Source: Ascidia mentula (lineage: Eukaryota > Chordata > Ascidiacea > Phlebobranchia > Ascidiidae). Taken from it: a stretch of DNA of 64,000 bases. Where the stretch lies: contig OX387197.1 of NCBI GenBank assembly GCA_947561715.1, forward strand, positions 377,001-441,000. The letters run 5' to 3'. Below are positions 11,289 to 60,100 of the stretch, one piece after another (within the stretch, counting starts at the first letter, position 1; the number at the start of each line of letters is the position of its first letter). The position numbers and the translations under genes are program-made. Under the pieces are notes generated by a model. That model saw only the letters and a program-made list of their open reading frames with translations, made no database searches and had not been told where the DNA came from.

Positions 11289-13004
11289 CGTCATAAGGGC
11301 GTCTGTTGCGTTATAGTTCAAATGCAGTAACTGTACATTTAAAATGGCTTCGAATTGCTGTGAATTTGTTAATTTTTTGTAGCCAGGAGTACATGGTGCA
11401 TTGTGTAAGCTGCATACAGATGGCTACTGTTTCGACCTTGGTCAATTAATATCATTGGCTCCACTTTGCATATCGTACTAAGTGCATGCTGCTTATTAAA
11501 CGTACCTGGTGCAAATATAGTGTTGTTGGTTGGCTAACTGTTTAAACCCAACCTGTACATTGAGATTTGCATAAATTCAAATAATTCTTGCACCAGAGTT
11601 ACGTTGGACGCTAAAAAAAACGAGAAATGCATCTAGTTAACCTGTTAACATCAACCAATTTAAAACTTTAAGGGGTTGGGGCTGGTAGTTTCAAGGTCAA
11701 CACCTCACAGCTGCTCACAAAACGTGGCGATGCAAATAAGTTGTTCACACCAGGTCCATCGAGAGAGAGAAATAAGTGTGTCGGTGCGAGAACCTTTTGT
11801 AATTTAGATCACATGACGTTATCGGTGGAGACCCAGGCTTCTACGATAGAAATCACTTAAATCATGGGCCCCCATTTGTTGTTCATGGGCCCACCTTAAC
11901 GAGGCGGGGGCCCTAGTACGCGGCACCGGCTGCTCCCCCTCTCTCGTGTAGTCTGCATTCAGGTTTCAACACTCCCTTATTTCATTTTTTCTCTTGTAAA
12001 TCGAAAATGCTTCATAATTATTGCAACCGAGTAACGATTCGGTTTTGAAATCTCTGAAGTATTTTGAAAACTTTTATTAATGATACCCAGGGTCCACGAC
12101 TCATTGATTTACATTACTTAACTATGCAGCAGGAGATTTAGGTTTTTCGTTTGTCTGTTTCGTGTAAATTTAAATAGGTAATTTCTACGTAATTTAAAAA
12201 CTCACTCTACACATACGGTTGTATTAAGTGCAGCCTTCATTTGCCACGAATAGTTGCTGTTATGCAAAGTGAAGAAGTGCGATATGGTAAACCTGAACTT
12301 TTTACTTCACAAGTTGTCCGAGAAACAACCTTGAGGATATTTAGGAATTTATATAGATAAGTTTGAAGCAGACGGTTTGTCCACCATGCACGGGACGCAG
12401 AGATTGAATTATTCGCTTAGCTTATGGAAACTTTAGAACAGGTTTCTTTGACAACATCATAAAAAAATCATTGTTAAGTTAGAAATGGGACTTGGAGCCA
12501 AGTAGGAACCAGAATATCAGATTAAACCCAGGCATGTTCGGATATAATTAACGCAAGTATTTTCTGACTACGTTTTTTACAAAAACATTTTACAAAGAAG
12601 ATGTTCAACGAATGTAATCTTCAAACTGGTTTGTGATTATAACAGAGATTGAAACAACGCACTGGAATATATTGTGGGCGGAAATGAGTCCCCGGTAGTT
12701 GGTGGTCACTTACAAATCGATCGAATAGTTCAGATTATATAACATCATATTTACGAGTTCAAGGTCACCTTTTCAATGCTTGAACCCCACGTGTTACACT
12801 AAACAGCAATGTTAAATATATTAGTCGAATGGTTATATATGATTCGGAACATTATGTTGTTTGCGAACTAAAACAATTCCTTCATCACAAACAACTTTTT
12901 CATGAAAACATCTACAACACCACTGTATGGTTCAACAATTTAAATGTGCTGAGACACCTTGTTTGATTTGTCGTCGTGTTCGTTGAAAGCACACAGGTCA
13001 TATA
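11289..13004. repeat. Intergenic region with dispersed repeats and a rearranged hammerhead-like piece
   Basis: No gene is supported. Three repeats can be seen. (1) 11399-11475 matches the hammerhead element at 44223-44311: its first part is the reverse complement of the ribozyme's 3' half and its last part (ATTGGCTCCACTTTGC) is in direct orientation. (2) 11565-11725 is about 85% alike a segment at 18725-18870 in the same orientation, so the pair flanks the LDLa-GPCR gene. (3) 11870-11950 is GC-rich with GGGCCC motifs and is related to 4890-4950. Confidence 0.5.
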
Positions 13005-21775: not shown

Positions 21776-24700
21776 TCAACGAAGACGTGGCAAAGGTTGA
21801 ACAGGCACTACAAATACTACAAAAATAGAGAACACAAGGAGTGCAACGATTCGGATGATGAGGTATATATCACATGTTTTTTTTTCTGCAAAACAAAATC
21901 TAGTTGTTACGTCATCTAATAGCATTATTTCTGCTCCTCTGAGAAAAACAGTAGCTTTTGACGATGGCCAAATGCACTGATTGGATTCCATTATTTTTGC
22001 TACAATACTTTTGTTTTTATTAAATAATTGAAAAAAAATTAAATAATATGATAAATTTTGAACTAAAATACACAAAAATTCATCATCAACAGATAAGAAC
22101 TCCCACAATCAGACACATCACAAATTATTATCCAGTCCGACAATGGAGTTGTTACGTAACCAATAAAACATACAATAAACAGCCAATTTCTGTCCACAAA
22201 AAAAAATACGTATGTACCTTTAATAAATTACAACCTAATTACTTTGGTTCTACGATTATTTATATTTTTACATAAATAATTATTATTTATAATAGTACAA
22301 AGTGTTTTTCAATTCACCTTCTATATGAATCATCAATGGTTTACTATATGGTCCTTTCCCAGCTAAGTTTGCAACTCTCATTTTCACCCAGTAATATGTG
22401 TTGACATTTGAAACATCGACCTTTCATTTAAAGCAAAATATTAAAATTTTGTAAACATCAAGAATTTTTATTGCTGTGTACCTTGAAGACAGTTTGTGTT
22501 GCATGAACATCATGTTCAATATTTGTAACCGACGAACTTCCACTAGGTGGTGTTGGAGTATCTGCACCATCATATAATTCTTCTTTTTGCAAAAGTATCT
22601 CATAGGTTACAATTTTTGCTCCATAATACCTTTTTTGGAATCCCTGTGAAAGTAATTTTTTTTAAAAAGCTGTTTATAAACTTGTCAAGTGTGCTATATT
22701 AATGCATGAAATTTAATTGTTCCTTGCAGCAAGGGTTGCTCCCCAGGCGTACTATATTTTGAAAATCTGTTTTTCGGGCACAATTGAACATAACTTTTAT
22801 TCACCGACGCTTCACCTGCTGTTTAGCTAGGCTTTATCGAAGTTGTTGTGTTTGAGGAGTGACCTCAACAGAAGTGAAGTATTTAATTCCTTATGAAGCC
22901 AAGCTGTATGGGAGGGGAATTGACCGTGAATAAAATGTGTGTTTAATTGTGCCAGAAGATTATTAAAATATTTGTCATAGCATAAAGAAACCAGTTTAAA
23001 GCTTGGGAAAAGATATTTGTTTCTAAATACACTAATTTTTGCTGAACACATCCTGTTACCTCCCAAGTTACAACCAGTTTTCCCTCTTCATGATTTCCAG
23101 ATATTCCTGTAGGTGCTGATACAGGAGCTGTGAAAATAAGGATGCAACATACATTTTCAGCTTTGTATTTATTACTTCATAGCAAAAGTCTTAGGGTAAA
23201 GTGCTTTCATAAAGAAAGCCCAGTCTGTACAAATAAAATCAAAAAGTGTGCATATTAACCGAAATGGTCAGTAAGTTGTTGTTTGGGCAATGCTGAAAAG
23301 TAAATTAATGCAGGATTTATCGACAACCTCAGGTGGTGTGAGTAATAACATTCGATACTTTTTTTCTGAAATTGACTTTTTTCCAACGCCACTTATTGTG
23401 CGTGGCACAGGTGGAAACTTCACAAATAAGAACTGATGATGCTTTTAGCGAATTATAAGGTTCACAGGCTTCGCAGCCAAGGCATTGCAGCCAAGCTGGA
23501 TCAGCCACTTTTTCCCGACAAGTCGGAGCGAGATCTAAAGAATCAAGCTCCCGGTGAGGTTTGAACTCACGACCCTGGGCTAACCAGGCCCAACGCTCTA
23601 CCAACTGAGCTACAGGAGCTTAGTGGTTTCACGGGGTATATTGTGGTCAAGGTACACTGGTGCGCAAGCGCACAACTTGCCAGGCGACCTTCACAACGTA
23701 GAGGATCTCTACCACCGTAATCAGTCAACGCAGAAGTAATGCCATGCTTTCGCATAGCATGCGCAAAGGGCCTGCGCAGTGGGGCGATCCTGCCTTGATG
23801 CTATGCGAAAGCGTGGTATTACTTCTGCGTTTAGCGAAACATGTTTTCTTTATAATAAACTGCTTTTTGACACAAGGTTATACTTTGTATTACAATTTTG
23901 GTTGAGGCTTCACAAATTTATTTAATTGTTTCTTAGTAAAGGCATTTACAAGATTTACTAAGACACATTCAAAGATTTTTTTGATTGTTTGAAAACCTGT
24001 TACTTTACTATTATCTTGAATTTCACATTTCTGGGTACATTTACCTCCAGCCATGGTAATGTTCCATTCGGTTTCTGCACTGGCTTCACTTTTTTCCATC
24101 TTGTTCCATGCATAAACACGATATGAGTAATAATTATATGGAAGTAAGTTATCAACTGTGCATGATGTTGTGTTTGTAGAACAAGCTTGACTCCATTCTG
24201 TGTCATATTCTCCTTTCTTTTCAGCTTCATAACTAGTTATGGAGGCTCCATTTGATTTAGGTTCGTTCCATGTAACAAGTTGAGAGTTGGACGATGATAA
24301 CATTATCTTCACATTGGTTGGTGCACCAGGTGGGACTAGAATACAATTGGGTCTTATAAACAAACTTAATATTAAAATCATATTTGTGAATATTTAAAAA
24401 TATTAATGACTCTGCATTATAGTTTTAGCGAAAAGATAAAGAATTAATGCTTTCCCAAATTGTACCGAAAACATCAACACAGATTTGTTTACAATCAGTT
24501 GAAACTTCAGTAGCTGCACAACATTCATATTCCCCAATTTGTTGACTTCCAACATCACGCAACTGGAAAAAAGTATCATATCTGAAACAGCAAAAGCGAC
24601 AAAATTGCTTTATGTACTTACCTCCAAAACTCCACCAGTAGCTTTGTAGTGAGAATCAATATTGCTGATTGTTTTGTTATTTTGTTTCCAGCTCCATGAA

Positions 24701-32640: not shown

Positions 32641-35240
32641 GGTGTAGCTCAATTATTATATGGAGCTGACCTGACTGACGTCATTGATAAGGCTCGCGGG
32701 TGGTGACGTTACGTTATGTTGTTATAGGTCACACACCACTAGATGCGGTAAGCGACGCAAAACGCAAAAAAAACACATTAAACATTGAGTAGAAATAGTG
32801 GTACAGAAGTCTCCTGCTGATGGAGTCGCTGTCCATACAACAACAACAACAACTTAATGTGGACGACACTTCTGCACCAATATTTCTTTTTTTTTATTCT
32901 GCGCCCATCCATACCGAATTATCACCTGAACAAACTCTATATAAAGTCATGCACAGCCTACTATCGATCTAAAACGTGTCAAATTGTTAGAACTGAGGAA
33001 GTTTGCTTGTTATAACAAACCACCTAACGGGTTTAGTGGGTTTTATGAATTTATGTCATATGTTGATGCATTGCAATGATGTAAACTTGAACCTGCTTGT
33101 GATGAAATGTCAGACTTTGCAACGTTCTATTTGCGCGAACCTCCATCTCATGCCACGTATTTAATTGTGTCGACGTTGCTCAAACATAGCTGGCCCGAAT
33201 AAATACCCGTCAAAATTTACGATGGAACTGACGTTGTCCCTGATACCAAATATGGGCAATTTACGTGGATGTAAGAAATGTTCGGTTCTTAGAGTTAACA
33301 TCACCACAGTGAGCTTTCAAGTGTGGATTTTTGTGACCAAACACACATTTCTCTTATTTAATGGGTGTTAAAGCTTATATTCTTCCTTTTGATATCCTGG
33401 GACTTCACATCATCACATGTATAGCGTGACGTGTTACTAAGCAACCATGAACGAAATTTCAACTGCAACGATTTTTAATAAACCAGCATCCACTTACTTT
33501 GGTTTAATTTTAGTTATATTTTGTGTTGAAAAAGTTGACCAGGGGTTCTATAATGTAACTTAACCAACGATGCGGAAAGTTAAGGTGAACAACATTCCCA
33601 GCAACATGACGTAAGCAGTTTAATCACGTGATACGGTGTGTGGTGAGGAGTGGAGGAAGATAGCGATTAACATTCCAGCTTTTCATTATTCGACACGAAC
33701 TGCGGGAAACATATTCAATGTTTAATCCACGTTCAAACACACCGAGAACTCGGGTGTAAAACAAACAACAATTAATCTCGTACCTCCGAACCACAATCGT
33801 GTTGAAACGTGGTGTGTGCGAACAAAGGTGGAGTTTACTTGTGGGCTTTAAACTTTGGGCGAGAACTTCATCTACCTGATCCAAGAAGTTGTGAAATTAG
33901 AGTATTTGTTTAATGTTGTAAACTTTGTACGGGTAATTCATCTTTTGTTCGCTTTTATCATGGCAACTTTCCAGTGGTACGAGGTTATTTCAAACACTAG
34001 ACACGCCCATGAACCACCCACTGATTCGTCAGAACACAAACAGACGTGACCTCAGTAACATTCTGTTTGAACTTGCAGAGTGTCGGTTGGAAATAAAATC
34101 CTTTGCAAGCACAGCCTGCTGCAGATCAACATTCATATCAAAACACAAAGTGCTTGAAAAGAAGTTTGTGGGTTTGTTTGTATCGGATGTTTAGTAGCCA
34201 CCCGACTTCCACAAACAAATGTTCACAAGCACAAAAGTACAGCTGGTCAAATACTGGTTTAGAATATAACCAAAGAAGATGATGGCAAAATCATGCAACA
34301 ACAACATAAAGTAAATTCTGTTTGCACCAAGTTCATCAGCACAAACAAAGTTGTTACCAATACAGGTTATGGTGAACTGGAATGCAACGTATTTCTCTTC
34401 CGTGTTTCTTATATATACCCTGGTGCTTACCATCATCATATGTATGTAGGGATGTGTAACTGGGCTACCATCAGTGGGAAGCATTTCACATGGCCAGTGT
34501 TTGTGGTCATTCATTTGTGGTAAAAGTTGTCCGAAGCGGGCAACATAATGAATGTGTTTTAAATAAGATTGCAGACAGGACTCTCCATTATTGGAAGTGT
34601 TTGCTATTTGATCACGTGACTGTTTGTACGAACCGAAATGTTAATTTCAAGGAATAAATTTTAGTTCGTATCGTCAGTGTTTTCGATGGTGTGTAAAACT
34701 GATGGCACCAGTCAAAAGGTTTATGACGACACAATCACCCCCACCTACGTCAATGATCCACAATAAACCTTTGTTGTGTAACTTTCACCTTCTGTTAGGG
34801 TTTGGACAAAACGACCATTTTATCCCTGATGGCTCACTCGACGACAGAACAATGTCACCATTGGTAATGTTTGCCCAGAATGGTTGAAACCGTATGTTGA
34901 TGCATTGCAACCTTGGGTAATGACTGTCCAGAATCCTGGTTGCATCCCGGTTGTAATATCCGCACCCAGAACTACTTTTAACACCTTGAGTTGGATCAGT
35001 TGGCAAATTGTGAAAAAACTAAGATCGTTATAACACCATATGTTATCTGTGCATTTATCTATCAAGCATTAGGTTGATTAAGTGGTCTAATTTTTGAAAA
35101 ACCTTTTGAAATCACATGTTGGTAACTTGTTTAACTTAGGAACAACTGTTAACGAATTTGCTCACAATTTTTAGAACAAAGAGACTGGCCCGTTGTTAAC
35201 ATTGTCATGTTTCATACGAAAAAACGTTTCGGCAAGAACT

Positions 35241-38572: not shown

Positions 38573-39061
38573 ACAACAACAACTTGTTGGAAATGTTGTG
38601 CATCCAGAAGTGTGTTTATGCCCCAATCACGTGATATCACAACCAGTGTTGCGTGTCCTTTTTATTTATGTGCCACTAAATGTTTTTGTGTGGTTTACGT
38701 TCGATGAAGTCGTGCTGTATGGCAGACCAAACTTTGGAAGAATAAAACACGTAAATTTATACCAGGAGATCAATCCTGTTCAAATTGTGGAATGCCTGGC
38801 AGCAAAATTAGCACAATCTAAGTATAGACGAAACAATGATACAGGCTGGCAAAAATTTCTAGAATTATTTTTGGAGCAGAATCTTTCAATCTTTAAAAAT
38901 GTTTTATAATTTTATTGTCGATGAAAAAACAATAAACAACACCGGATCGGTGAACCAAGCCACCCTGGTAGGCTGTCGATCGATACCGTATCTGTAGTAG
39001 CTGAGTAAAACTTTTAAATCAATCTTTCAGACAGCTCTTTTAAAGATGTTTTTATTTTTGT

Positions 39062-39105
39062 CAGAAAAATATATTTCGCCCTGAAAAGGGCATCATCAGT
39101 TTCTG
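39062..39105 (-). ncRNA. Hammerhead ribozyme motif, left arm of palindrome
   Basis: Mirror copy of the motif at 40157-40200. On the - strand: CAGAAA, CUGAUGA, a stem-loop with GCCC/GGGC, GAAA, UAUAUU, UUUCUG. Stem I (CAGAAA/UUUCUG) is perfect, and AUAUAU allows only a tiny or an intermolecular stem III. Confidence 0.7.
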
Positions 39106-39509
39106 CAAAGTGTACAAAACAACGTAAAATAACGAAGTAGAAGTCTGCCACATTAAGGAAAGTACCTTGATAAAAATTAAAAAACTTAAAAAAATTAAAA
39201 ATTAGATAATGCAAATGAAAACCTGGATATGTAAGAAAAGAACTAGTAACTGACTGCCAGTATAATTCCAACAAAAAATATGTCGCCCAAAACCTGACAA
39301 AACTCGCGAGCAAGTCCAACATCTAAATGTACACGTCACACGATATACGACGCCAAAAAATGCAACGAACCGTAAAGAGGAAAAAACACTACAAAGAAGG
39401 GAACACGAGGTTCGAACTTGACAATATTGTCCGCCTAAAGGCTCAAAAGTTCGAACCTCGTGTTCCCTTCTTTGTAGTGTTTTTTCCGGTGTTTCTAAAA
39501 TGCACAATG

Positions 39510-39862
39510 TCGCTAATGTCGCTAATGCCCCGTTTTGTGAATGATGCTGCTAATGCCCGCTTATGTGGCTAATGCCGCTAATGTCGCTAATGCCGCTAAT
39601 GCCCGCTTATGTGGCTAATGCCGCTTATGTGGCTAATGCCCGCTAATGCCCGCTAATGTAGCTAATGCCGCTAATGCCCGCTTATGGAGCTAATGGCGCT
39701 TTAACATTAGCTACATTAGCGGCATTAGCGCCATTAGCTACATTAGCGCCATTAGCTCCACAAGCGGGCATTAGCGGCATTAGCTACATTAGCGGGCATT
39801 AGCGGCATTAGCGGCATTAGCGGCATTAGCGGCATTAGCGGCATTAGCTGCCTTAGCGGCAT
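39510..39862. repeat. Minisatellite of 9-bp GCTAATGCC-type units that flips orientation
   Basis: Up to about 39,698 the units read GCTAATGCC/GCTAATGTC/GCTTATGTG; after GGCGCTTTAACATTAGC they continue as the reverse complement (GGCATTAGC). The array is therefore itself an inverted repeat at the centre of the large palindrome. Variants (TGCCCGC, TGTAGC, TGGAGC) are mirrored only in part. Confidence 0.85.
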
Positions 39863-40156
39863 TGTGCATTTTAGAAACACCCTGTTTTTTCCTCTTTACG
39901 GTTCGTTGCATTTTTTGGCGTCGTATATCGTGTGACGTGTACATTTAGATGTTGGACTTGCTCGCGAGTTTTGTCAGGTTTTGGGCGACATATTTTTTGT
40001 TGGAATTATACTGGCAGTCAGTTACTAGTTCTTTTCTTACATATCCAGGTTTTTATTTGCATTATCTAATTTTTAATTTTTTTAATTTTTATCAAGGTAC
40101 TTTCCTTAATGTGGCAGACTTCTACTTCGTTATTTTACGCTGTTTTATACACTTTG

Positions 40157-40200
40157 CAGAAACTGATGATGCCCTTTTCAGGGCGAAATATATTTTTCTG
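40157..40200 (+). ncRNA. Hammerhead ribozyme motif, right arm of palindrome
   Basis: Stem I CAGAAA (40157-40162) pairs with UUUCUG (40195-40200). Core CUGAUGA is at 40163-40169, stem II GCCC/GGGC with a 6-nt loop, GAAA at 40185-40188. Cleavage is predicted after U40194 (UU). The stretch AUAUAU forms a 2-bp hairpin or, as a palindrome, a stem III between two ribozymes. That is the dimeric form described for Penelope-like hammerheads. Confidence 0.75.
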
Positions 40201-40288
40201 ACAAAAATAAAAACATCTTTAAAAGAGCTGTCTGAAAGATTGATTTAAAAGTTTTACTCAGCTACTATAATTTTATTGTAATTTGTTT

Positions 40289-42199: not shown

Positions 42200-44222
42200 T
42201 TAAAGACCCCCAACAAACTTCATTCACCCAAAAAAGATTTGGTAAAAACGACACGACTGAACAAATTTTGACACTTATAACACAACTAAACGTATACCCT
42301 TTGCTTTTATATTAATACTAGTTTAGTGCTGACCCCTTTCAAGTCACTTACCTATACATAATGCCTTACTCTATCCTCTTAATTCAGTTTATTTAATTTA
42401 GAGTATTGTTAAAGTTTTTCACGCTGAAAAAAAGTTTGAAAACCGATAAAACAATGAGGGGGAATCACCGTTCGTCGTAGGATCTCAGTATTTCTGAATA
42501 TTTTCCACGCATGAGGAGATAGGCGTGTGTTTATTCAACCATGAATCAATATGTTCACCTACCTAGGGTCGCACACGTATTAAATGATCTTTATTATAAT
42601 TACAACTGTTACAATCCGGATTCATTTAAACTTAAACTGATTTTAAACTTTGCTGTGCGTTGTGATCCTAAAGAACTTCAAACCCTGCTCTAACTTCTGC
42701 TCAAGCCACTGTCTGATCGTTCATCGAACAAGGTTGCTTTTTATATGTTCATCCCTGGACCCCCTGTGCAACAAACTTCTTCAAAAGCGAGCTGAAGGAG
42801 ACAAAGTTGCGCCGGGCTACTCTGTTTGCACATAACACCATCTTACACTCTGTGTTCAATTGTGTGGACACTGTTCCTACATGAGTGCCTACAATCAATA
42901 TTTGCTTCGAGTTCCGTTGTGCCTGATATCCAAATATGGGAAACACGTGGATGTAACAAATGTTCGGTCCTTGTGTAAAGTTTCTCAGTGAACTTTCAAT
43001 TGGGATTTTTGTGACCAAACACACATATCTCCTAATCAATTGATGTTTGATGCTTATTTTTTTCTTTTATATCCTGGGACTTGTAAAGCGTGATGTGTTA
43101 CTAAGCAACCATGAAGAACGCATTTCAACTGCAACGATTTTCAATAAACCAGCAATCTACTTACTTTGGTTTATGTTCAGTTATTTTTTGTTTTAAAGAA
43201 GTTGACCAGGGGTTCTATAATATAACTTAACCAACGATGCGGAAAGTTAAGGCGAACACAATCCCCAGTAACATGACGTAGACAGTTTAATCACGTGACA
43301 TGTTGTGTAGTGAGGAGTGGGGGACGGTAGCGATTAACATCCCTGTCTTTCATTGTTCGACACGAACTGCGGGAAACATATTCGATGTTTAATCCACGTT
43401 CAACCACACCGAGAGCTCGGGTGCAAAACAAACAACAATTAATCTCGTGACTCCGAACCCCAATCATGTTGAAACGTGATTTGTGCGAACAAAGGTGGAG
43501 TTTACTTGTGGGCTGCAAACTTTGTGCGGGAACTTTACCTACTTGTTCCAAGAAGTTGTGAATGAAGTGTATTTGTTTAATGTTTTCATGATGGCAACTC
43601 TCCAATGGTACGAGGTTATTCACCTGATACTAGACACGCCCATGAACCACCCACTGATTCGTAAGAACACAAACAGACGTAACCTCAGTAACAATCTGTT
43701 TGAACGAAACTTGGTGCAAAGTGTTGCACAAAGTGATCAAAATGAAGTTTGTGGGTTTGTTTGTATCGGACGTTTAGTAGCCGCCCGGGGCAATACAAAT
43801 GTTCACAAACACAAAAGTACAGCTGGTCTAATAATGATTTAAAAAATATAACTAAAGAAGACGAAGGCGAAATCATGGAACAACACAAAGCAAACTTTGT
43901 TGCACCAAATTCATCAGCACAGACGAAGTTGTTACCAGCACAGGTTATGGTGAACTACAATGCATCGTATACTTCTTTTATATCCTGGTTTTTACCACCA
44001 CCATATGTATGTAGGGATGTGGAACTGGATTATCACCATTGGAAAGCATTTCACATGGTCAGTGTTTCCTGGTGATTTTTGTGGTAAAAAGATGCCCGGC
44101 AATTAAATGAGGCAGACCTGGTGTCTCCAATATTGATTCACGCAGGCATTGTTTGCTATCTGATCACGTGACCGTTTGCACAAACAAAAATGATAATTTA
44201 AACTTTACGACAGAGGAATAAA

Positions 44223-44311
44223 AGCTGCACTGATGAGACCTTTTAGGTCGAAACAGTGGCCATCTGTCTGCAGCTTACACAATTCATATTATTGGCTCCA
44301 CATTGCTTATC
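44223..44311 (+). mobile_element. 89-bp mobile element made of a hammerhead ribozyme plus 37-nt tail
   Basis: GAATAAA is duplicated at 44216-44222 and 44312-44318. The paralogous site in unit 1 (34652-34658, GGAATAAATTTTAG) has one copy and no insert, so this is a discrete insertion. Nearly 60% of the insert is the ribozyme; the rest ends ATTGGCTCCACATTGC. It has no coding capacity, no tRNA promoter and no poly(A) tail. A rearranged relative lies at 11399-11475. Confidence 0.85.
44224..44274 (+). ncRNA. Type I hammerhead ribozyme, all core residues intact
   Basis: Stem I GCUGCA (44224-44229) pairs perfectly with UGCAGC (44269-44274). Core CUGAUGA is at 44230-44236. Stem II is GACC/GGUC with a UUUUA loop (44237-44249). 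GAAA is at 44250-44253. Stem III is ACAG/CUGU (closing A included) with a 7-nt loop. The cleavage triplet is GUC, so scission is predicted after C44268. Every conserved catalytic position matches the hammerhead consensus, including G and A of CUGAUGA and GAAA. Confidence 0.88.
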
Positions 44312-44432: not shown

Positions 44433-44558
44433 GTTGCGTAACTTTCACTCTTCGTTGCGTAACTTTCACTCTTCGTTGCGTAACTTTCACTCTTCGTTGC
44501 GTAACTTTCACTCTTCGTTGCGTAACTTTCACTCTTCGTTGCGTAACTTTCACCCTCC
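44433..44558 (+). repeat. 21-bp minisatellite, six units
   Basis: GTTGCGTAACTTTCACTCTTC repeated six times with almost no variation. The paralogous site near 34775 has one unit, so expansion followed the duplication. Confidence 0.9.
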
Positions 44559-46360
44559 GTTAGGGTTTGGACAAAACGACCATTTATATTTTATCCCTGA
44601 TGGCTCACCCGACGACAGAACAATGTTACCTTGGGTTAATAATTGCCCAGAAATCTGGTAAGTTTGCTCGGTCGTAATATCCGCACCGAGAACTGGTTTT
44701 AACACCTTGTGTCGTAACAGTTGGCAATTTGTGATGGACACTATATGTTATTCGGACATTTATCTATCAAACATTGGGCTGAATAACTATTCTGTTTCAA
44801 AAAAACTTATGACATCACATGTTGGTAACTTGTTCAACTTTATTTAAATAATAAAAACCCCGAGCAAGGAAACAACTTAAACCATCTTTGCATCACTCAA
44901 ATTATTGAAACTTAAAACGCACTTTGATCAAAAAAACGGTTTTTTGTTTTTAAATTTAAGAAACTTTTGATATTTTCATTGTTTTATTTTTTATTCCCCT
45001 TCCACACGTACCGAGTTTGTATCATCAGTTCAAACTCCATAAAAAGTCAACCTACTATCAATCTAACACGCGTAAAATTGTTAAAACTGAGGAAGTTTTG
45101 TGGTTGTTACAATAAACCACATTACTGGCCTAGTGATTTTTATATATAGTTGACATTTGTGTCATATGTTGATGTTTTGCAATGCTGCGTGCTTAGCAAC
45201 TTCGACATCAGGCATTGTTTAAACTGCTTGTTACACCTACATGGCCAAACACAACGTCCTAAAAAACGCCCTGACGGATTTTTCCTTTTTTACTTTCCAC
45301 ACCCCCGACACGCCCCCTGATGATTGGGATGACGTCACAACAGCTCATTAGCATACAAGTTCCATCGAACTTCGTTTGTCTACCCCCACCTAACGGCAGC
45401 TACATACAAGGTTTCAAAAAACGCAAAGTTTTTCAATAACACGTTTCCCGACTTCAACCTTAGGTTTATCAAATCTGTTCACAATCCCTGCCAACCAGAC
45501 CAGACCAGACTCCGACACATAAATTACAATACAAAAAACAAGAATTGCGATAACGTAAATTATGCATGGTCATCTGTACAATTGTCAGTATATCTGGTAT
45601 AGTATATCGGTATAAGGTGTGTTACACAATGAGAGATTTTAAATCCGGACGTTTAAGCGTTGTTTATTATTTTCTCTCACCTAAAATCTTGGACATATCA
45701 GGGGAAATCCCTTTCATAGGATTGCATTCATCCGCTCTTGAAGGTGATTGGTTGCCGTCGGTCGCACCGAATAATCGTCAACAACTCATCACTTTATAAC
45801 TGTTTACAAACCTACATTAGGTTTAGACCACGACCTATAATCAGCAACTCATCATGAATTAAAACAAACTTGTAATAAAGATATAAATAATCTGAAGTCA
45901 TGCCTGTTGGCTGCACTTACAAGATTTCAGTCAGTATTAGTGCAATTTTTGTGGAAGTGACGTCACCATCTTACTTTACAATTTTTTTTGGTTTCGCAGA
46001 AAATAACCTAAGGTCAACAAAGCACTTGTTTATAAAACCTGCACTGCCACCTAGCGACAGATTTCATTCAGAGTCGATTTAGAAAGGAATCAATTTCAAT
46101 GCAACTTACCGAGACATATAATAAACAAACAAATTTTAGTGGTTATCGTGCGTCATGTAAAAAAAACGTAGAATTTGCAAATATTAAAACAAAAAATAAT
46201 TTACAGGCGAAAAAAATATAAACGCATTTCGGCTTAGCAACAGTCTATGCATCGGTGCATCACTGGTTGCTTTGTTACGTTTGTGGTTTAAGATGGGTAT
46301 TTCCCACAGGCGTGACTTATTCAGATACAGATATGTGGAGTAAAGGTTACCAACTGCTGG

Positions 46361-47424: not shown

Positions 47425-50400
47425 TTATGGATTATTTATTTGTGAATAACTTGAATTTCTTGTGGTTTTGTGGCAATTTTTTTTTTCCTTTTGCCAAATT
47501 TTTAAAGCTATCACCACAAAAAGTACAACAACAAAAGGCAAAATAAAGAGCGCCACAAAAGCAGTATCTGTGGCAGTCAACCTTTCATTGCTTCCTGTAA
47601 ATACAGAGACAGATCAAACATTACTTCAGTAATTGGAATTAACAGTTGTGTATCGTTAAGAGAAAAGTTACCTGCATTGCTTCAAAACCAACCATGGAAA
47701 TTAGTGTAGTTAAGTACACAAATACATCACATACCATGATATAAATAGATCATGTGTTCATACCTTCTATATGAACAATAACTGGTTTATTATATGGTCC
47801 TTTACCAGCTAAGTTGGTAACTGTAGGTGCTGATACAGGAGCTGAAAAATTTAGGTCTTAAGTCAGTTTATAATTGTAAAAATAGTTGCATTTACCTCCA
47901 GTCATGGTAATGTTCCATTCAGTTTCTGTACTGGTTTCACTTTTTCCAATCTTGTTCCGTGCATAAACACGATATGAGTAATAATTATATGGAAGTAAGT
48001 TTTCAACTGTGCATAATGTTGTGTTTGTAGAACAAGCTTGACTCCATTCTGTGTCATATTCTCCTTTCTTTTCAGCTTCATAACTAGTTATGGAGGCTCC
48101 ATTTGATTTAGGTTCGTTCCATGTAACAAGTTGAGAGTTGGACGATGATAATATTATCTTCACATTGTTTGGTGCATCAGGTGGGGCTGGAACAAGAGTA
48201 TGCCCACATTTAACAAATTGTTTAGGCAACAAAGTAGGGAATTATTAGTAACGTTTTCACTGCAAACAATTTTAGACAATATTATATCAGTGGACACATG
48301 AGTTTTATACTTCACATAGAAATACATGGTTCTTTTAAATTTACATAAACTTTATGGTTGCCAGGCCATTGTCACATTGGTTTATTACCAATGTAAACAT
48401 AAAAAAATCCTAATTACCAAGAACATCCAAATATATTTGTTTACAATCAGTTGAAACTTCAGTAGTTGCACAACATTCATATTCCCCAATTTGTTCACTT
48501 CCAACATCGCGTAGCTTAAAGTAAATAATTAAAAACATCAGAAGCAGCAAAATCCACGAAATCATTTAAATAAAACCTACTTCCAAAACTCCACCAGTAG
48601 CTTTGTAGTGAGAATCAATATTGCTGATTATTTTATTATTTTGTTTCCAGCTCCATGAAACTTCCAATTTTGGGTCATGTTTTTCAAAACATTCAAGTTC
48701 AACTGCATCCCCAGCTTCAACAGTTTCTTCAACTGATCGTGATGCCTTGTTGTACTCGTTGCCTCCAACTCTACTTTACATCAACTGCTAATTATTTGAT
48801 TATACTGGATAAGAAAATTACTTTCGCTTCAGGCTGTATTTTAAACTTAAACTGATGATTTCTTTTTCGCAAAGTGAGTTTTCACAACGATTCGCCAATG
48901 CAATTATTTGTGCTTTGTTTTTTTTTTTGTTTTTTTTTCTAAATTACTGTGCTTTATTCAGCAATTATGATGCTTTCTTTATTTTTTTGCAATTTATTCT
49001 TGTAATTTTTTTCTGTGCCTCATTTTGGAATTATTGTGTTTGTTTTCTTTTGAAACTAGCGTAATATCTGCTTCCTAGAAATCAGTGGTGCTGGCGGTTG
49101 ATAAAGGATTTTTGTGTCCTATAGTCAGCATCACCCGCTGTACACAAAATATGCACATTACTTTATTTTATTTTAATTCGCGGAAATAAACTGACTGACT
49201 GACTGACTGATGTGACTTCTGTTTGGTCTAAAAGTGAAAACAATTTGGGCATTTTGTGGGTGCAAAACTTGGACTAGGAGCAAAAAAAGGAAACAAAAAA
49301 TCGATTTTGCAGCACCTGATGAAGCGTGATTAACTGCGCGAAAGCTTGTGTTTAAAAAAATATTTAACAGTCAGTCTACCAAAACAGTGCACCTGAATGT
49401 ACTAAAGCTATAAACCTGAGATTGACACGGAATATTGAATATGTTTATAGTTTAAATAAGAGCAACAACTCTATTGCTACATTAATCACTGCAACCCATA
49501 TTTCATTTTATGTTAAACTATTATGTGTAGGTGATGTCACTGCCCATAAAGAAATATAAGTAACACAAAGTCATGCACCAGTGATTTTGTCTTCTTTCAG
49601 TGAACTTGTCTTGGCCGAGTGCATTAACCTTGTAGTCAGTTGCTACTGTTTGTGGTGCTTTGAGGGGCTGTGTTGTTTAATTGTTCTGATACATTTAGAT
49701 AACTTAACAGTTTAAATACTTCATCATATAATAACTATCTTGTAAAATGTGTGATTTTAACGGGTGTTGGTCATTTCAACACTTACTGAAAACATGAAGT
49801 CTTGTGCTACAAGATCGAAACCCAAGAGGATTTGTGACAACACATGTATATTTCCCCTCATCCGATTTCACAACATTGAATATTTTTAAACGACCATTGT
49901 CTATTGTGTATCTGATGAAGAAAATGTGGTTGATGCATTATTTGTTAACAAAATAAAAATAACATGTCATTATATAGTTTTTAAAATACCGAAATAATTT
50001 GTATTAGTATTTTAAAATGTCTGTCTTTATGTAGATGTCACTGATATACATGAAATGAATTTATAATTGCTAAAATAAATGAATGCAGGAAAGTCAACTT
50101 ACTTCTTAGTGTTATAAAGTTGTTCAAGTCCTTTCAACCATTCAATTTCAGGTAAGGGAAATCCTGATACATTACAAACCATTGTGACATCACTATTGGT
50201 CGAAGCTTTAGTAATTTTATCCATTAGTGTAAGGCATGGAATTTCCTCTGCAAAAACATAGTGAAAAAATGCAACCATATATCTGTACAATCACACACTA
50301 TTACAGAAGAATATTTTTGACATGCATAAAAAGACACTATTATGGAAAACATACTTTTAATTGTAAGATGTGCACTTGAGAAAAGGTGTCCAATAGAATT

Positions 50401-53579: not shown

Positions 53580-53966
53580 ATTCACAGGCTTCGCAGCCAA
53601 GCTGGATCAGCCACTTTTCCCGACAAGTCGGAAAAGGTCCCCTGACAAGTTGTGCGCTTGCGCACCAGTGCACCTTGGACACAATATACCCCGTGAAACC
53701 ATTGAGCTCCTGTAGCTCAGTTGGTAGAGCGTTGGGCCTGGTTAGTCCAGGGTCGTGAGTTCAAACCTCACCGGGAGCTTGATTTTTCAGATCTCGCTCC
53801 GACTTGTCGGGAAAAGTGGCTGATCCAGCTTGGCTGCAATGCCTTGGCTGCGAAGCCTGTGAACCTTATGATCAGAATATTAGAGCTGTGATCGCCCAAT
53901 ATAAAGGGCCTGTGCAGTGGGGCGATCTTGCCTTGCTATGCGAAAGCTTGGCATTGCTTCTGCGTT
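53580..53966 (+). mobile_element. tRNA-like SINE between copies D and C
   Basis: Same family as 23450. The flank TATCAGTGGA/TATTAGTGGA is repeated at both sides. Copies B (41625) and C (48287) have the uninterrupted TATATCAGTGGACACATG, so it is a young insertion in the intron joining copy D's Ig6b to copy C's Ig1a. Confidence 0.85.
53706..53778 (+). tRNA. tRNA-like module of the SINE (Thr GGU-like)
   Basis: Same cloverleaf as at 23547-23619, with GTTAGTCCA in the anticodon arm, which breaks one stem pair. Part of a SINE rather than a convincing tRNA gene. Confidence 0.4.
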
Positions 53967-57100: not shown

Positions 57101-60100
57101 CAGAAATTGTTGAAGAATAAAGGAATACCAAGAACCAAAATCAAAATTTAGTTTAGGCCAGTAGTGGTTCTTAACCGGGGGGCGTCAACCAATTCTCATG
57201 AGGGGCGCAAGCTCTATACCAAAACTTAATTTTTTGTAGTGACTTTAATGTCCTATGCTGTCTGTTATATATTTCTTACAGTTTCGGAACAAAAATCTTT
57301 TACTTTAAATAAAAAATCCGCCTGTGCAGTTAAGTTACTGTTACGTCACAAAGCAAGCATTGCGTCACAAAATACCTTTCGTGATGATTCATCTGTTTCG
57401 TCACAAACTGTTTATTGGTCCCGTAATGTTTTAGTTTAAATAAGCAAACTTAAATTGATACGTAAGGTTCACAGGCTTCGCAGCCAAGGCATTGCAGCCA
57501 AGCTGGATCAGCCACTTTTTCCCGACAAGTCGGAGCGAGATCTGAAAAATCAAGCTCCCGGTGAGGTTTGAACTCACGACCCTGGGCTAACCAGGCCCGA
57601 CGCTCTACCAACTGAGCTACAGGAGCTCAGTGGCTTCACGGGGTATATTGTGGCCAAGGTACACTGGTGCGCAAGCGCACAACTTGTCAGGCGACCTTCA
57701 CATGCGTAGAGGATCTCCACCACCGTAATCAGACAACGCAGAAGTAATGCCATGCTTACGCATAGCAAGGCGGGATCGCCCCACTGCGCAGGCCCTTTAT
57801 ATTTGGCGATCACAGCTCTAATATTCTGATCATAAGGTTCACAGGCTTCGCAGCCAAGGCATTGCAGCCAAGCTGGATCAGCCACTTTTTCCCGACAAGT
57901 CGGAGCGAGATCTGAAAAATCAAGCTCCCGGTGAGGTTTGAACTCACGACCCTGGGCTAACCAGGCCCGACGCTCTACCAACTGAGCTACAGGAGCTCAG
58001 TGGCTTCACGGGGTATATTGTGGTCAAACCTCACCGGGAGCTTGATTTTTCAGATCTCGCTCCGACTTGTCGGGAAAAAGTGGCTGATCCAGCTTGGCTG
58101 CAATGCCTTGGCTGCGAAGCCTGTGAACCTTATGATCAGAATATTAGAGCTGTGATCGCCAAATATAAAGGGCCTGCGCAGTGGGGCGATCCCGCCTTGC
58201 TATGCGTAAGCATGGCATTACTTCTGCGTTGTCTGATTACGGTGGTGGAGATCCTCTACGCATGTGAAGGTCGCCTGACAAGTTGTGCGCTTGCGCACCA
58301 GTGTACCTTGGCCACAATATACCCCGTGAAGCCACTGAGCTCCTGTAGCTCAGTTGGTAGAGCGTCGGGCCTGGTTAGCCCAGGGTCGTGAGTTCAAACC
58401 TCACCGGGAGCTTGATTTTTCAGATCTCGCTCCGACTTGTCGGGAAAAAGTGGCTGATCCAGCTTGGCTGCAATGCCTTGGCTGCGAAGCCTGTGAACCT
58501 TATGATCAGAATATTAGAGCTGTGATCGCCAAATATAAAGGGCCTGCGCAGTGGGGCGATCCCGCCTTGCTATGCGTAAGCATGGCATTACTTCTAAATT
58601 GATACGTATTATGTTTATATCATGTTGCAGTGTTTACCTAGCTAGCTTATTTAGGTAGGTCGACAAAAACACAATTGCTTTTGGTATGAAACCTATTTAC
58701 AGTTTGGGGGGGGGGGGGGGGGCGTAAGGCACAAGTCCGTTACTAAAAGGAGGCGTGATAGAAAAAAGGTTAAGAACCACTGGTTTAGGCGAAGAAAATC
58801 GCCTGGAATTAACGGCAACTTGTGCGTCTGGCAGCTATATTGGATTGATGTGCGCGTTTACTGCCTCGTTAAGACTCTCAATCAAATAATAAACGTTTTC
58901 TCCTAATTCTCTGAGTCACTTCAAAAAGTTCTGCGAAAGATTTTAAATTTACGAAAATTTTCTAAGTTAGTTGTACTTAGTTGTTTTCTAACTTAGTTGT
59001 TTTCTAACTTACTAACGAAAATCATAACAGATAAGCTTTAGTGTTCGTCTACTTTCAGTTTCAACATGATCAAGATTTATTCACCGCAGTAAAAACGCTC
59101 ACAACAGCGAAAGTTGGTGACAGGCGTGTAATTAGTTGCCGTTATGTTTTTCTTCGCCTATTCAGATTTTTGGTGCTTGGACGTTACATTCTTCGGCAGT
59201 TTCTGCTTTGCCTAAACGTAAGAGTTTTCCCACAATAGGATTTACGGCTGCGCTGCACACGTTTTAGGAAATAACTCCTATTTAAACCAATGCATTTTCA
59301 GCCAATCTTTACCTGCAGCATTGTGCCGTCAGAGCCATTGTTGACGCAAAGTTGGAACTATGAAGCCTAAACAACTCTATACTATGTGTCACCAACTTCA
59401 GGCTAAGCAGAAAACAAGATCTAATTAGGTGCAGAAACAGGTTCAAGGGAACAAATAAACAACTCTAAATAAGCAGTAATGTTTCATGCAATGGCACAGA
59501 CTTGTGTAAAGGAGTTCTACAACACCAACAGTAAACCTTGAGATAGAGAAGGCAAGTTGCCTACGAGGCCGAATTGCTATCAAGACTAAGTCGGTCTCTT
59601 TGAGCGCGAGGCCGACACTTGGATGCATAAATATACAGCAAGAAACAATTCTTACCCATATATGAAACTTGTAACTGTATTAAACTTGATTTTCGTTCCC
59701 ATGTCACCTCATCAACCACCCAACTTCCTCTCACAACACACTTGTATAACCCAGTATCTGCTTGTGTTGGTTCAACAAAATACAAACTCCCATCGAGTTG
59801 AGACACATAATGAGTTTTGTCATTTGCTACAACAGAGTTGAATCCCGTTGTATTTACTTTTTCCCAGTAGAACTCAACTTGATTATCTGAAAATCGAACA
59901 CTTTTCAAAAAATTGAAATTTTGTTTTAATTTTAAGAAATTAATTTGCAGTTAATTATTGCAAAAAGATCTGAAATCACATTTAGTTCCCACTTGCCTTT
60001 AATATGTCACAGAATATTTTTTTACCAAATTACGTCACGAAGGAGGTACGGTTAAGTTATGACGTCATAACTACCGTGGTTTCGATTAGAAAATATAACA

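What the first reader, a model, noticed from the sequence alone, without database searches (positions are those of the whole stretch)
44223..44311. A minimal hammerhead ribozyme that has moved as an 89-bp element
A complete type I hammerhead (stem I GCUGCA/UGCAGC, CUGAUGA, stem II, GAAA, stem III ACAG/CUGU, GUC cleavage site) makes up most of an 89-bp insert. GAATAAA is duplicated at both sides, and the paralogous segment (34652) has one copy and no insert. Hammerheads are known in Ciona and in retroelements such as Penelope-like elements and retrozymes. A free-standing element this small, with no coding, tRNA promoter or poly(A) tail, is not something I recognise. It might spread as a self-cleaved, perhaps circular, RNA copied by a LINE or Penelope enzyme (inference).
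Basis: partly seen in the sequence, partly recalled or inferred. Interest (0 to 1): 0.92.

Follow-up and report, generated by a model that had tools for sequence, protein, structure and literature searches.

The report
Truncated Penelope-copied hammerhead retrozyme
The 89-base insert is a broken-off end of a family of about 283-base non-coding jumping elements in a sea squirt, each carrying a self-cutting RNA motif, and the way the copies end suggests strongly that the enzymes of Penelope-like retrotransposons copy them.

Summary
The hammerhead and the 89-bp insertion are real (44223-44311; TSD GAATAAA; empty paralogous site at 34652), but 89 bp is not the element. It is a 5'-truncated copy of a ~283-286-bp non-coding unit (here RZ1) with one type I hammerhead, present about 1,900-2,800 times in the genome (chromosome lengths match Ascidia mentula). 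Insertions are monomers or tandem arrays, often two head-to-head 5'-truncated arms, mostly between 9-16-bp TSDs. Outer 3' ends sit near two points, 17 (S) and 45 (L) bases past the cleavage site. Of 32 two-armed loci in an L-selected sample 26 are S/L, 6 L/other, none L/L; six more are all S/L. Penelope-like element (PLE) copies of the same genome show the same anatomy (10 of 11 examined). That two-start-site 'tail' is published as a PLE signature. Copies run across the cleavage junction, so the template was circular or an uncleaved multimer. Cleavage, circles and the partner PLE (family E weakly suggested) remain untested.

The parts
44223..44311 (+). 5'-truncated single 'L' arm of the RZ1 retrozyme unit (unit positions u238 to u45, u1 = first base after the cleavage site)
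44223..44275 (+). type I hammerhead ribozyme, predicted cleavage 44268|44269
44285..44311 (+). 27-bp 'tail' between the short (S) and long (L) 3' ends of the family
   Evidence: genome-wide counts
44216..44222 (+). left target-site duplication GAATAAA
44312..44318 (+). right target-site duplication GAATAAA
34652..34658 (+). single GAATAAA of the paralogous empty site
11397..11477 (.). second, diverged RZ1 insertion in the window: two small head-to-head arms, minus arm ending near S, plus arm near L (ends judged by eye; no exact TSD longer than 6 bp found)

Best explanation
RZ1 is a non-autonomous, non-coding retroelement of the metazoan retrozyme kind that is mobilised in trans by Penelope-like elements. 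Proposed cycle: a copy or array is transcribed; the hammerhead cuts multimers to ~283-nt monomers, which are ligated into circles (inferred; known for other animal retrozymes). A PLE protein binds the circle at a hairpin just 3' of the hammerhead, cuts both strands of AT-rich DNA some 9-16 bp apart and starts reverse transcription internally at two neighbouring points, near u17 (S) from one target end and near u45 (L) from the other. Each cDNA runs across the ribozyme junction, sometimes several times round, then stops; the two cDNAs join head-to-head, mostly at short overlaps, between target duplications. The window insert is a one-armed L product that stopped at the 5' end of the hammerhead. 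Shown: unit, copy number, tandem periods, arms, two preferred ends, S plus L in most two-armed inserts, TSDs, the same anatomy in PLE copies of this genome. Inferred: cleavage, circularity, PLE protein binding, which PLE.
For: Copies: 1,914 matches to the 33-nt hammerhead 5' half and 2,810 to the 20-nt 3' half, <=2 mismatches, backward-read control patterns 0. Ends: 1,437 places carry the sequence just past S and 292 that just past L, so roughly 49% are lost before or at S and 41% between S and L (patterns differ in length, so approximate). TSD >=9 bp in 37 of 52 loci versus 3 of 520 mismatched flank pairs; these TSDs are 81% AT, window 63%. Two-armed loci in that L-selected sample: 32 = 26 S/L (S = u10-30, L = u38-62), 6 L/other, 0 L/L. 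Six further complete pairs, three picked because neither arm showed L in the pattern lists, are all S/L. PLE copies: S/L ends, TSDs 10-13 bp in family A 3 of 3, B 3 of 3, C 3 of 3, E 1 of 1, D 0 of 1 resolved; ORFs of A, B and D carry RVT_1 and GIY-YIG. Array units: 0.25% divergence within a strand (32 pairs), 0.07% between opposite arms (19), 1.68% between arrays (611). [quoted passage not shown] PLE terminal repeats act in trans (PMC3846280 passages).
Against: No RNA, circle or cleavage data. The isolated hammerhead's MFE fold is an alternative (-17.5 against -15.2 kcal/mol; hammerhead probability 0.003), and stem I has no loop or bulge for the usual tertiary contact. The catalytic core is not more conserved than the rest in 113 RZ1 copies (1.6% vs 1.3%, p 0.52). 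Six of 32 two-armed loci have a second end that is not S; three of these (L037, L042, L064) have TSDs of 10-16 bp, so the S/L pairing is not without exception. 15 of 52 loci show no TSD >=9 bp; the window's own is 7 bp. None of 42 held loci around GIY-YIG matches shows clear sequence kinship with RZ1 outside nested RZ1-type copies; tail similarity to PLE family E is marginal (shuffle p about 0.02, uncorrected for 4 families; RZ2 vs E p 0.15; RZ2 vs C p 0.02). The published in vitro PLE needed the first 172 nt of its ORF, did not need hammerhead cleavage, and showed no strand difference in start site (PMC11167929).
Confidence: 0.82

Rival explanations
1. A free-standing 89-bp mobile element whose ends are those of the window insert.
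For: The window copy and 8 of 39 other top copies start within six bases of u238.
Against: 31 of 39 extend at least 11 bases further upstream into the shared unit, with 5' ends scattered (for example u63, u94, u133, u172, u210); tandem arrays have 283-286-bp periods; clustering near u238 is partly made by the query starting there.
Confidence: 0.02
2. A SINE-like element mobilised by a LINE through ordinary target-primed reverse transcription.
For: 5' truncation, TSDs and twin-primed inverted arms also occur with LINE machinery (general knowledge, no call).
Against: No poly(A) or simple-repeat 3' end in the flanks read, no Rfam tRNA match at this place, two preferred internal 3' ends about 28 bp apart, tandem units crossing the 3' end, and the same S/L anatomy in GIY-YIG PLE copies of the genome. 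LINE families of this genome were not examined.
Confidence: 0.05
3. The template is not a circle but an uncleaved multimeric transcript of an existing array; the hammerhead is a passenger.
For: Both templates let cDNA cross the cleavage junction; in the studied Anolis PLE hammerhead mutants did not affect insertion in vitro (PMC11167929); RZ1 arrays that could give such transcripts exist.
Against: Only about a tenth of hammerhead places run on past L (292 against 2,810), so few loci could give multimers; each array is near-homogeneous in sequence and unit length, as copying one small circle would give, although a homogeneous parent array would give the same; other animal retrozymes are abundant as circles (PMC7229834).
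Confidence: 0.3
4. RZ1 is a deletion derivative of one particular PLE (a PLE counterpart of a MITE), not a retrozyme of independent stock.
For: Same kind of ends and a hammerhead in both; the RZ1 tail resembles that of PLE family E over 15 bases.
Against: No clear sequence kinship with RZ1 in the 42 held loci around GIY-YIG matches, which are a part of 134 matches; PLE hammerheads seen there have other stem II and stem III sequences.
Confidence: 0.3

Closest known systems
Metazoan non-LTR retrozymes (Cervera & de la Pena 2020, PMC7229834; parts 1-4 of 6 read)
   Same: Small (283-286 bp) non-coding unit, GC 47%, one type I hammerhead per unit, tandem copies, TSD longer than 4 bp, co-existing with PLEs.
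   Different: Hammerhead without stem I bulge for the loop-loop contact; many RZ1 insertions are head-to-head two-armed; [quoted passage not shown] Expression and circles untested here.
Penelope-like elements with a 'tail' (Frangieh et al. 2024, PMC11167929, parts 1-2 of 4 read; Adineta Penelopes, PMC3846280, passages seen)
   Same: Two adjacent internal RT start points, tail of similar length (28 here; 25-44 in PLE copies of this genome; 30-40 in the paper), TSD around 9-14 bp, inverted 5'-truncated arm, tandem copies, AT-rich targets, hammerhead.
   Different: RZ1 has no RT or endonuclease; its unit is about a tenth of the length of the 2,870-bp PLE unit seen here; no clear sequence relation to the PLE loci held.
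Plant LTR retrozymes (PMC4918200, search listing only)
   Same: Hammerhead-bearing non-autonomous retroelements thought to move as circles.
   Different: Those have LTRs, type III hammerheads, 4-bp TSDs and Gypsy-type mobilisers (as stated in PMC7229834 and in passages of PMC7761336).

Membership tests
Metazoan non-LTR retrozyme | type I hammerhead in each unit | tested here: met
   100 of 113 hammerhead copies with intact core by a loose pattern
Metazoan non-LTR retrozyme | 170-400-nt non-coding unit, GC below 50% | tested here: met
   283 bp, GC 47%, longest stop-free run 81 aa in a trimer, for the one genomic unit used
Metazoan non-LTR retrozyme | occurs as tandem dimers to multimers | tested here: met
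   arrays with up to six hammerheads on one strand; 292 places carry sequence past L
Metazoan non-LTR retrozyme | canonical loop1-loop2 tertiary contact | tested here: not met
   stem I is 7 perfect pairs without loop or bulge; the paper itself counts mussel retrozymes that lack most of these nucleotides, so I do not treat it as defining
Metazoan non-LTR retrozyme | expressed as self-cleaved, circular RNA | not testable with these tools
   no RNA data
Penelope-like element | encodes telomerase-like RT (and GIY-YIG endonuclease) | tested here: not met
   unit non-coding
Penelope-like element | two 3' ends separated by a short tail | tested here: met
   PLE copies of this genome
Penelope-like element | inverted 5'-truncated arm and TSD of about 9-14 bp | tested here: met
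   32 of 52 loci two-armed, 37 of 52 with TSD >=9 bp; the window copy itself is one-armed with 7 bp
Penelope-like element | sequence kinship with a PLE of the genome | tested here: inconclusive
   only marginal tail similarity to family E; none elsewhere in 42 held loci
tRNA/LINE-type SINE | pol III promoter and A-rich or LINE-like 3' end | tested here: not met
   no Rfam tRNA match at 44.2 kb; 3' ends are mostly ..ACACAAT or ..GCTTATC; non-tRNA pol III promoters not tested

The most novel reading that the evidence does not exclude
Metazoan retrozymes are parasites of Penelope-like elements, and their insertions follow a rule with few exceptions, one cDNA started at S and one at L, that also holds for the PLEs themselves: each of the two cut target strands primes at its own start site on the circular RNA. 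The retrozyme circle would then be the smallest known PLE substrate, a ~283-nt RNA with tail hairpin and hammerhead but no ORF.
Probability: 0.6. Interest if true: 0.68.

Novelty: new variant of a known kind. Interest (0 to 1): 0.52.

Why it matters
Animal retrozymes make very abundant small circular RNAs (PMC7229834), but what moves them has been left open: that 2020 paper calls PLEs a strong candidate, a 2024 review still says LINEs or PLEs (PMC11722881, passages). The end anatomy here ties one such family to PLEs by a signature published as unique to PLEs, and the usual one-S-one-L pairing gives a concrete, testable statement about how PLE enzymes prime the two target strands. In the listings of searches and the passages I read I saw no paper linking retrozymes with the PLE tail; I did not open most of the listed papers, and the library holds few subscription papers.

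Tried and rejected
Rejected: free-standing 89-bp element; LINE/SINE route (no poly(A), two internal ends); simple satellite amplification by unequal crossing-over (dispersed copies with TSDs); hammerhead by chance. Looked for selection on the catalytic core in RZ1 copies: none seen, as expected of recent dead-on-arrival copies but no support either. Looked for a partner PLE by sequence: none clear; the 4,477-bp tandem at C52 with a family-E end turned out to be a segmental repeat without an ORF of 120 aa or more. Family D (L076) and RZ3 (L076) ends could not be resolved. The automatic TSD search for PLE family A was caught by an internal palindrome; the outer ends were read and the TSDs redone. 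The stem I pairing count was mis-indexed and is not used. L-end flanks partly match the template's next bases (ATAT, 49-67% at positions 2-5), which may be microhomology, end heterogeneity or AT-rich targets; not pressed. Clavelina lepadiformis was considered as the host; none of the chromosome lengths searched for appears in its paper (passages); two older PLE-hammerhead papers are not held.

Full report
Observation. The hammerhead lies at 44223-44275 as described, inside an 89-bp insert (44223-44311) between two GAATAAA copies, and the paralogous stretch near 34652 has one GAATAAA and no insert. A strict structural descriptor finds it once in the window and never in 5.12 Mb of Markov sequence. 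Rfam reports nothing here at gathering thresholds; with relaxed limits the best match is RF03152 (29.8 bits, cut-off 56.3).

Genome. The window is G000:C1:377001-441000 of a 195.8-Mb assembly in 79 contigs. Its mitochondrial COX1 reads in the ascidian code (AGA/AGG at conserved glycines; that they are conserved is my reading of the protein). The nine large contigs match the chromosome lengths of Ascidia mentula kaAscMent1.1 to within 0.01 Mb, though the published total is 197.0 Mb in 95 scaffolds (PMC11109543, passages). No paper in the held library holds 'hammerhead', 'ascidian' and 'retrotransposon' together.

The real unit. Of 1,697 first-look candidates the tool scored 40, giving 45 matches. 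The 40 full matches are the window's own copy and 39 others, which I fetched (L048 is the second arm of one of them). In 31 of these 39 the family sequence goes on at least 11 bases upstream of u238, the point that matches 44223; in the other 8 it stops within six bases of it. Aligned to one genomic unit (L012:601-883, rotated so that u1 is the first base after the cleavage site), insertions are single arms or tandem arrays of 283-286-bp units, often with an inverted, 5'-truncated arm, head-to-head. The window copy runs from u238 to u45: a 5'-truncated single arm. A 33-nt hammerhead pattern with up to two mismatches is found 1,914 times in the genome, control 0. A diverged second family, RZ2 (L074:7084-7345), has 1,888 first-look candidates, 40 scored.

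Two preferred 3' ends. The outer 3' ends of the arms fall near u17 (S, after ..ACACAAT) or u45 (L, after ..GCTTATC). I classed u10-30 as S and u38-62 as L, since BLAST may run a few bases into the flank. In 52 loci (window included; the rest chosen for containing L in one arm or as multimers, so not random; L020 and L021 look like copies of one duplicated segment) 32 are two-armed: 26 S/L, 6 L with another end, 0 L/L. Of the six, L012 looks like an S arm over-extended into its flank, L020/L021 show no TSD, and L037, L042 and L064 have TSDs of 10-16 bp with a second end that is not S: real exceptions. From the pattern lists on C1 I fetched seven more head-to-head pairs. L107-L109 were picked because neither arm showed L in the listed exact matches; the other four showed an L arm there. 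Six are complete and all S/L, TSD 7-14 bp; the seventh (L111) was cut by my own coordinates. Whole-genome counts need no such choice: 2,810 places cross the cleavage site, 1,437 carry the sequence just past S, 292 that just past L, controls 0. The patterns differ in length and tolerance, so the shares (about 49%, 41%, 10%) are approximate and do not by themselves fix the exact end points.

Target duplications. TSDs of 9-16 bp occur in 37 of 52 loci against 3 of 520 when left and right flanks of different loci are paired. They are 81% A+T (window 63%). The window's is 7 bp. Head-to-head junctions show short overlaps in 29 of 40, two are flush, nine have a gap.

Template. The insertions found run from u17 or u45 back over u1 into u283 and beyond (the queries select for this, but there are thousands). 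A self-cleaved linear monomer (u1..u283) cannot give them; a circle or an uncleaved multimer can. In 37 complete units from 15 loci, units of one array are nearly identical (0.25% on one strand, 32 pairs; 0.07% between opposite arms, 19 pairs) against 1.68% between arrays (611 pairs); L059 and L060 are one locus, so its pair is counted twice. Arrays keep their own unit length, with one 286 among 285s in L080. This fits rolling reverse transcription of one circle; it does not exclude a transcript of a homogeneous parent array.

Penelope-like elements of the same genome. A GIY-YIG search gives 134 matches with 150 of 382 candidates scored, many in open frames of 700-890 aa. Three translated ORFs (families A, B, D) carry RVT_1 and GIY-YIG over their cut-offs. 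One locus holds two minus and three plus copies of 2,870 bp, head-to-head and 99.9-100% identical, the retrozyme arrays' architecture on a larger scale. Hammerhead-like motifs stand shortly before the 3' ends of several families. Of 11 two-armed PLE copies examined (some truncated), 10 have one short and one long 3' end with TSDs of 10-13 bp: families A (3; tail about 44), B (3; 38-42), C (3; 31-34), E (1; 25); D (1) was not resolved. RZ2 (1 of 1) has a 26-bp tail and a 12-bp TSD; RZ3 was not resolved.

Meaning. Frangieh et al. [quoted passage not shown] RZ1 has that kind of ends, and S and L lie within a predicted hairpin (u12-u59; S in its 5' arm, L at a bulge opposite). PLE terminal repeats have been seen to act in trans on unrelated sequence (PMC3846280, passages). 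The best explanation is therefore that RZ1 is copied by a PLE enzyme. Cervera & de la Pena 2020 (PMC7229834, parts 1-4 of 6 read) named PLEs a strong candidate for animal retrozymes on the grounds of shared hammerheads, tandem copies and co-existence; the shared end anatomy is, as far as my searches go, a new and more specific argument.

Partner. None of the 42 loci around GIY-YIG matches that I held shares clear sequence with RZ1 apart from nested RZ1-type copies. The RZ1 tail aligns with that of family E over 15 bases (shuffle p 0.02 uncorrected, four families tried; RZ2 against E p 0.15, RZ2 against C p 0.02), and the tail lengths are closest (25 vs 26-28). This is a lead only.

Against. 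No RNA evidence. The isolated motif prefers another fold by 2.3 kcal/mol, and lacks the usual stem I-loop II contact. Its core is not specially conserved in recent copies (100 of 113 intact by a loose test). The Anolis PLE needed ORF sequence in its RNA and did not need ribozyme cleavage; it showed no difference of start site between strands, unlike the S/L pairing seen here in DNA, which itself has exceptions.

Verdict. The insert is a truncated piece of an abundant retrozyme-type family of a known kind, with a new, well-supported tie to Penelope-like elements.

Noticed in passing
window 38919-40265: Another two-armed element without an ORF of 150 aa: 394-bp inverted arms (97% identical), a hammerhead-like motif in each arm (39099 minus, 40163 plus), 14-bp TSD TATAATTTTATTGT; end difference about 78 bp, longer than the other tails.
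   Followed up: partly
window 49300-49520: Hammerhead-like 3' region that by eye resembles PLE family D of the genome.
   Followed up: no
window 53706-53779, 57553-57626, 57923-57996, 58339-58412, 23546-23619: Five near-identical tRNA-like matches, possibly a tRNA-derived repeat.
   Followed up: no
window about 44434-44560: Short tandem repeat TTGCGTAACTTTCACTCTTCG beside the insert, of which the paralogue near 34780 has about one copy.
   Followed up: no
L106 (G000:C52:19505350-19510150): A 4,477-bp tandem segment with a PLE family-E end and no ORF of 120 aa or more.
   Followed up: partly
L065-L066 (G000:C67:6132001-6151000): Five 99.9-100% identical 2,870-bp PLE copies, two minus and three plus, head-to-head, with an 886-aa RT/GIY-YIG ORF: looks like one recent event.
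   Followed up: partly
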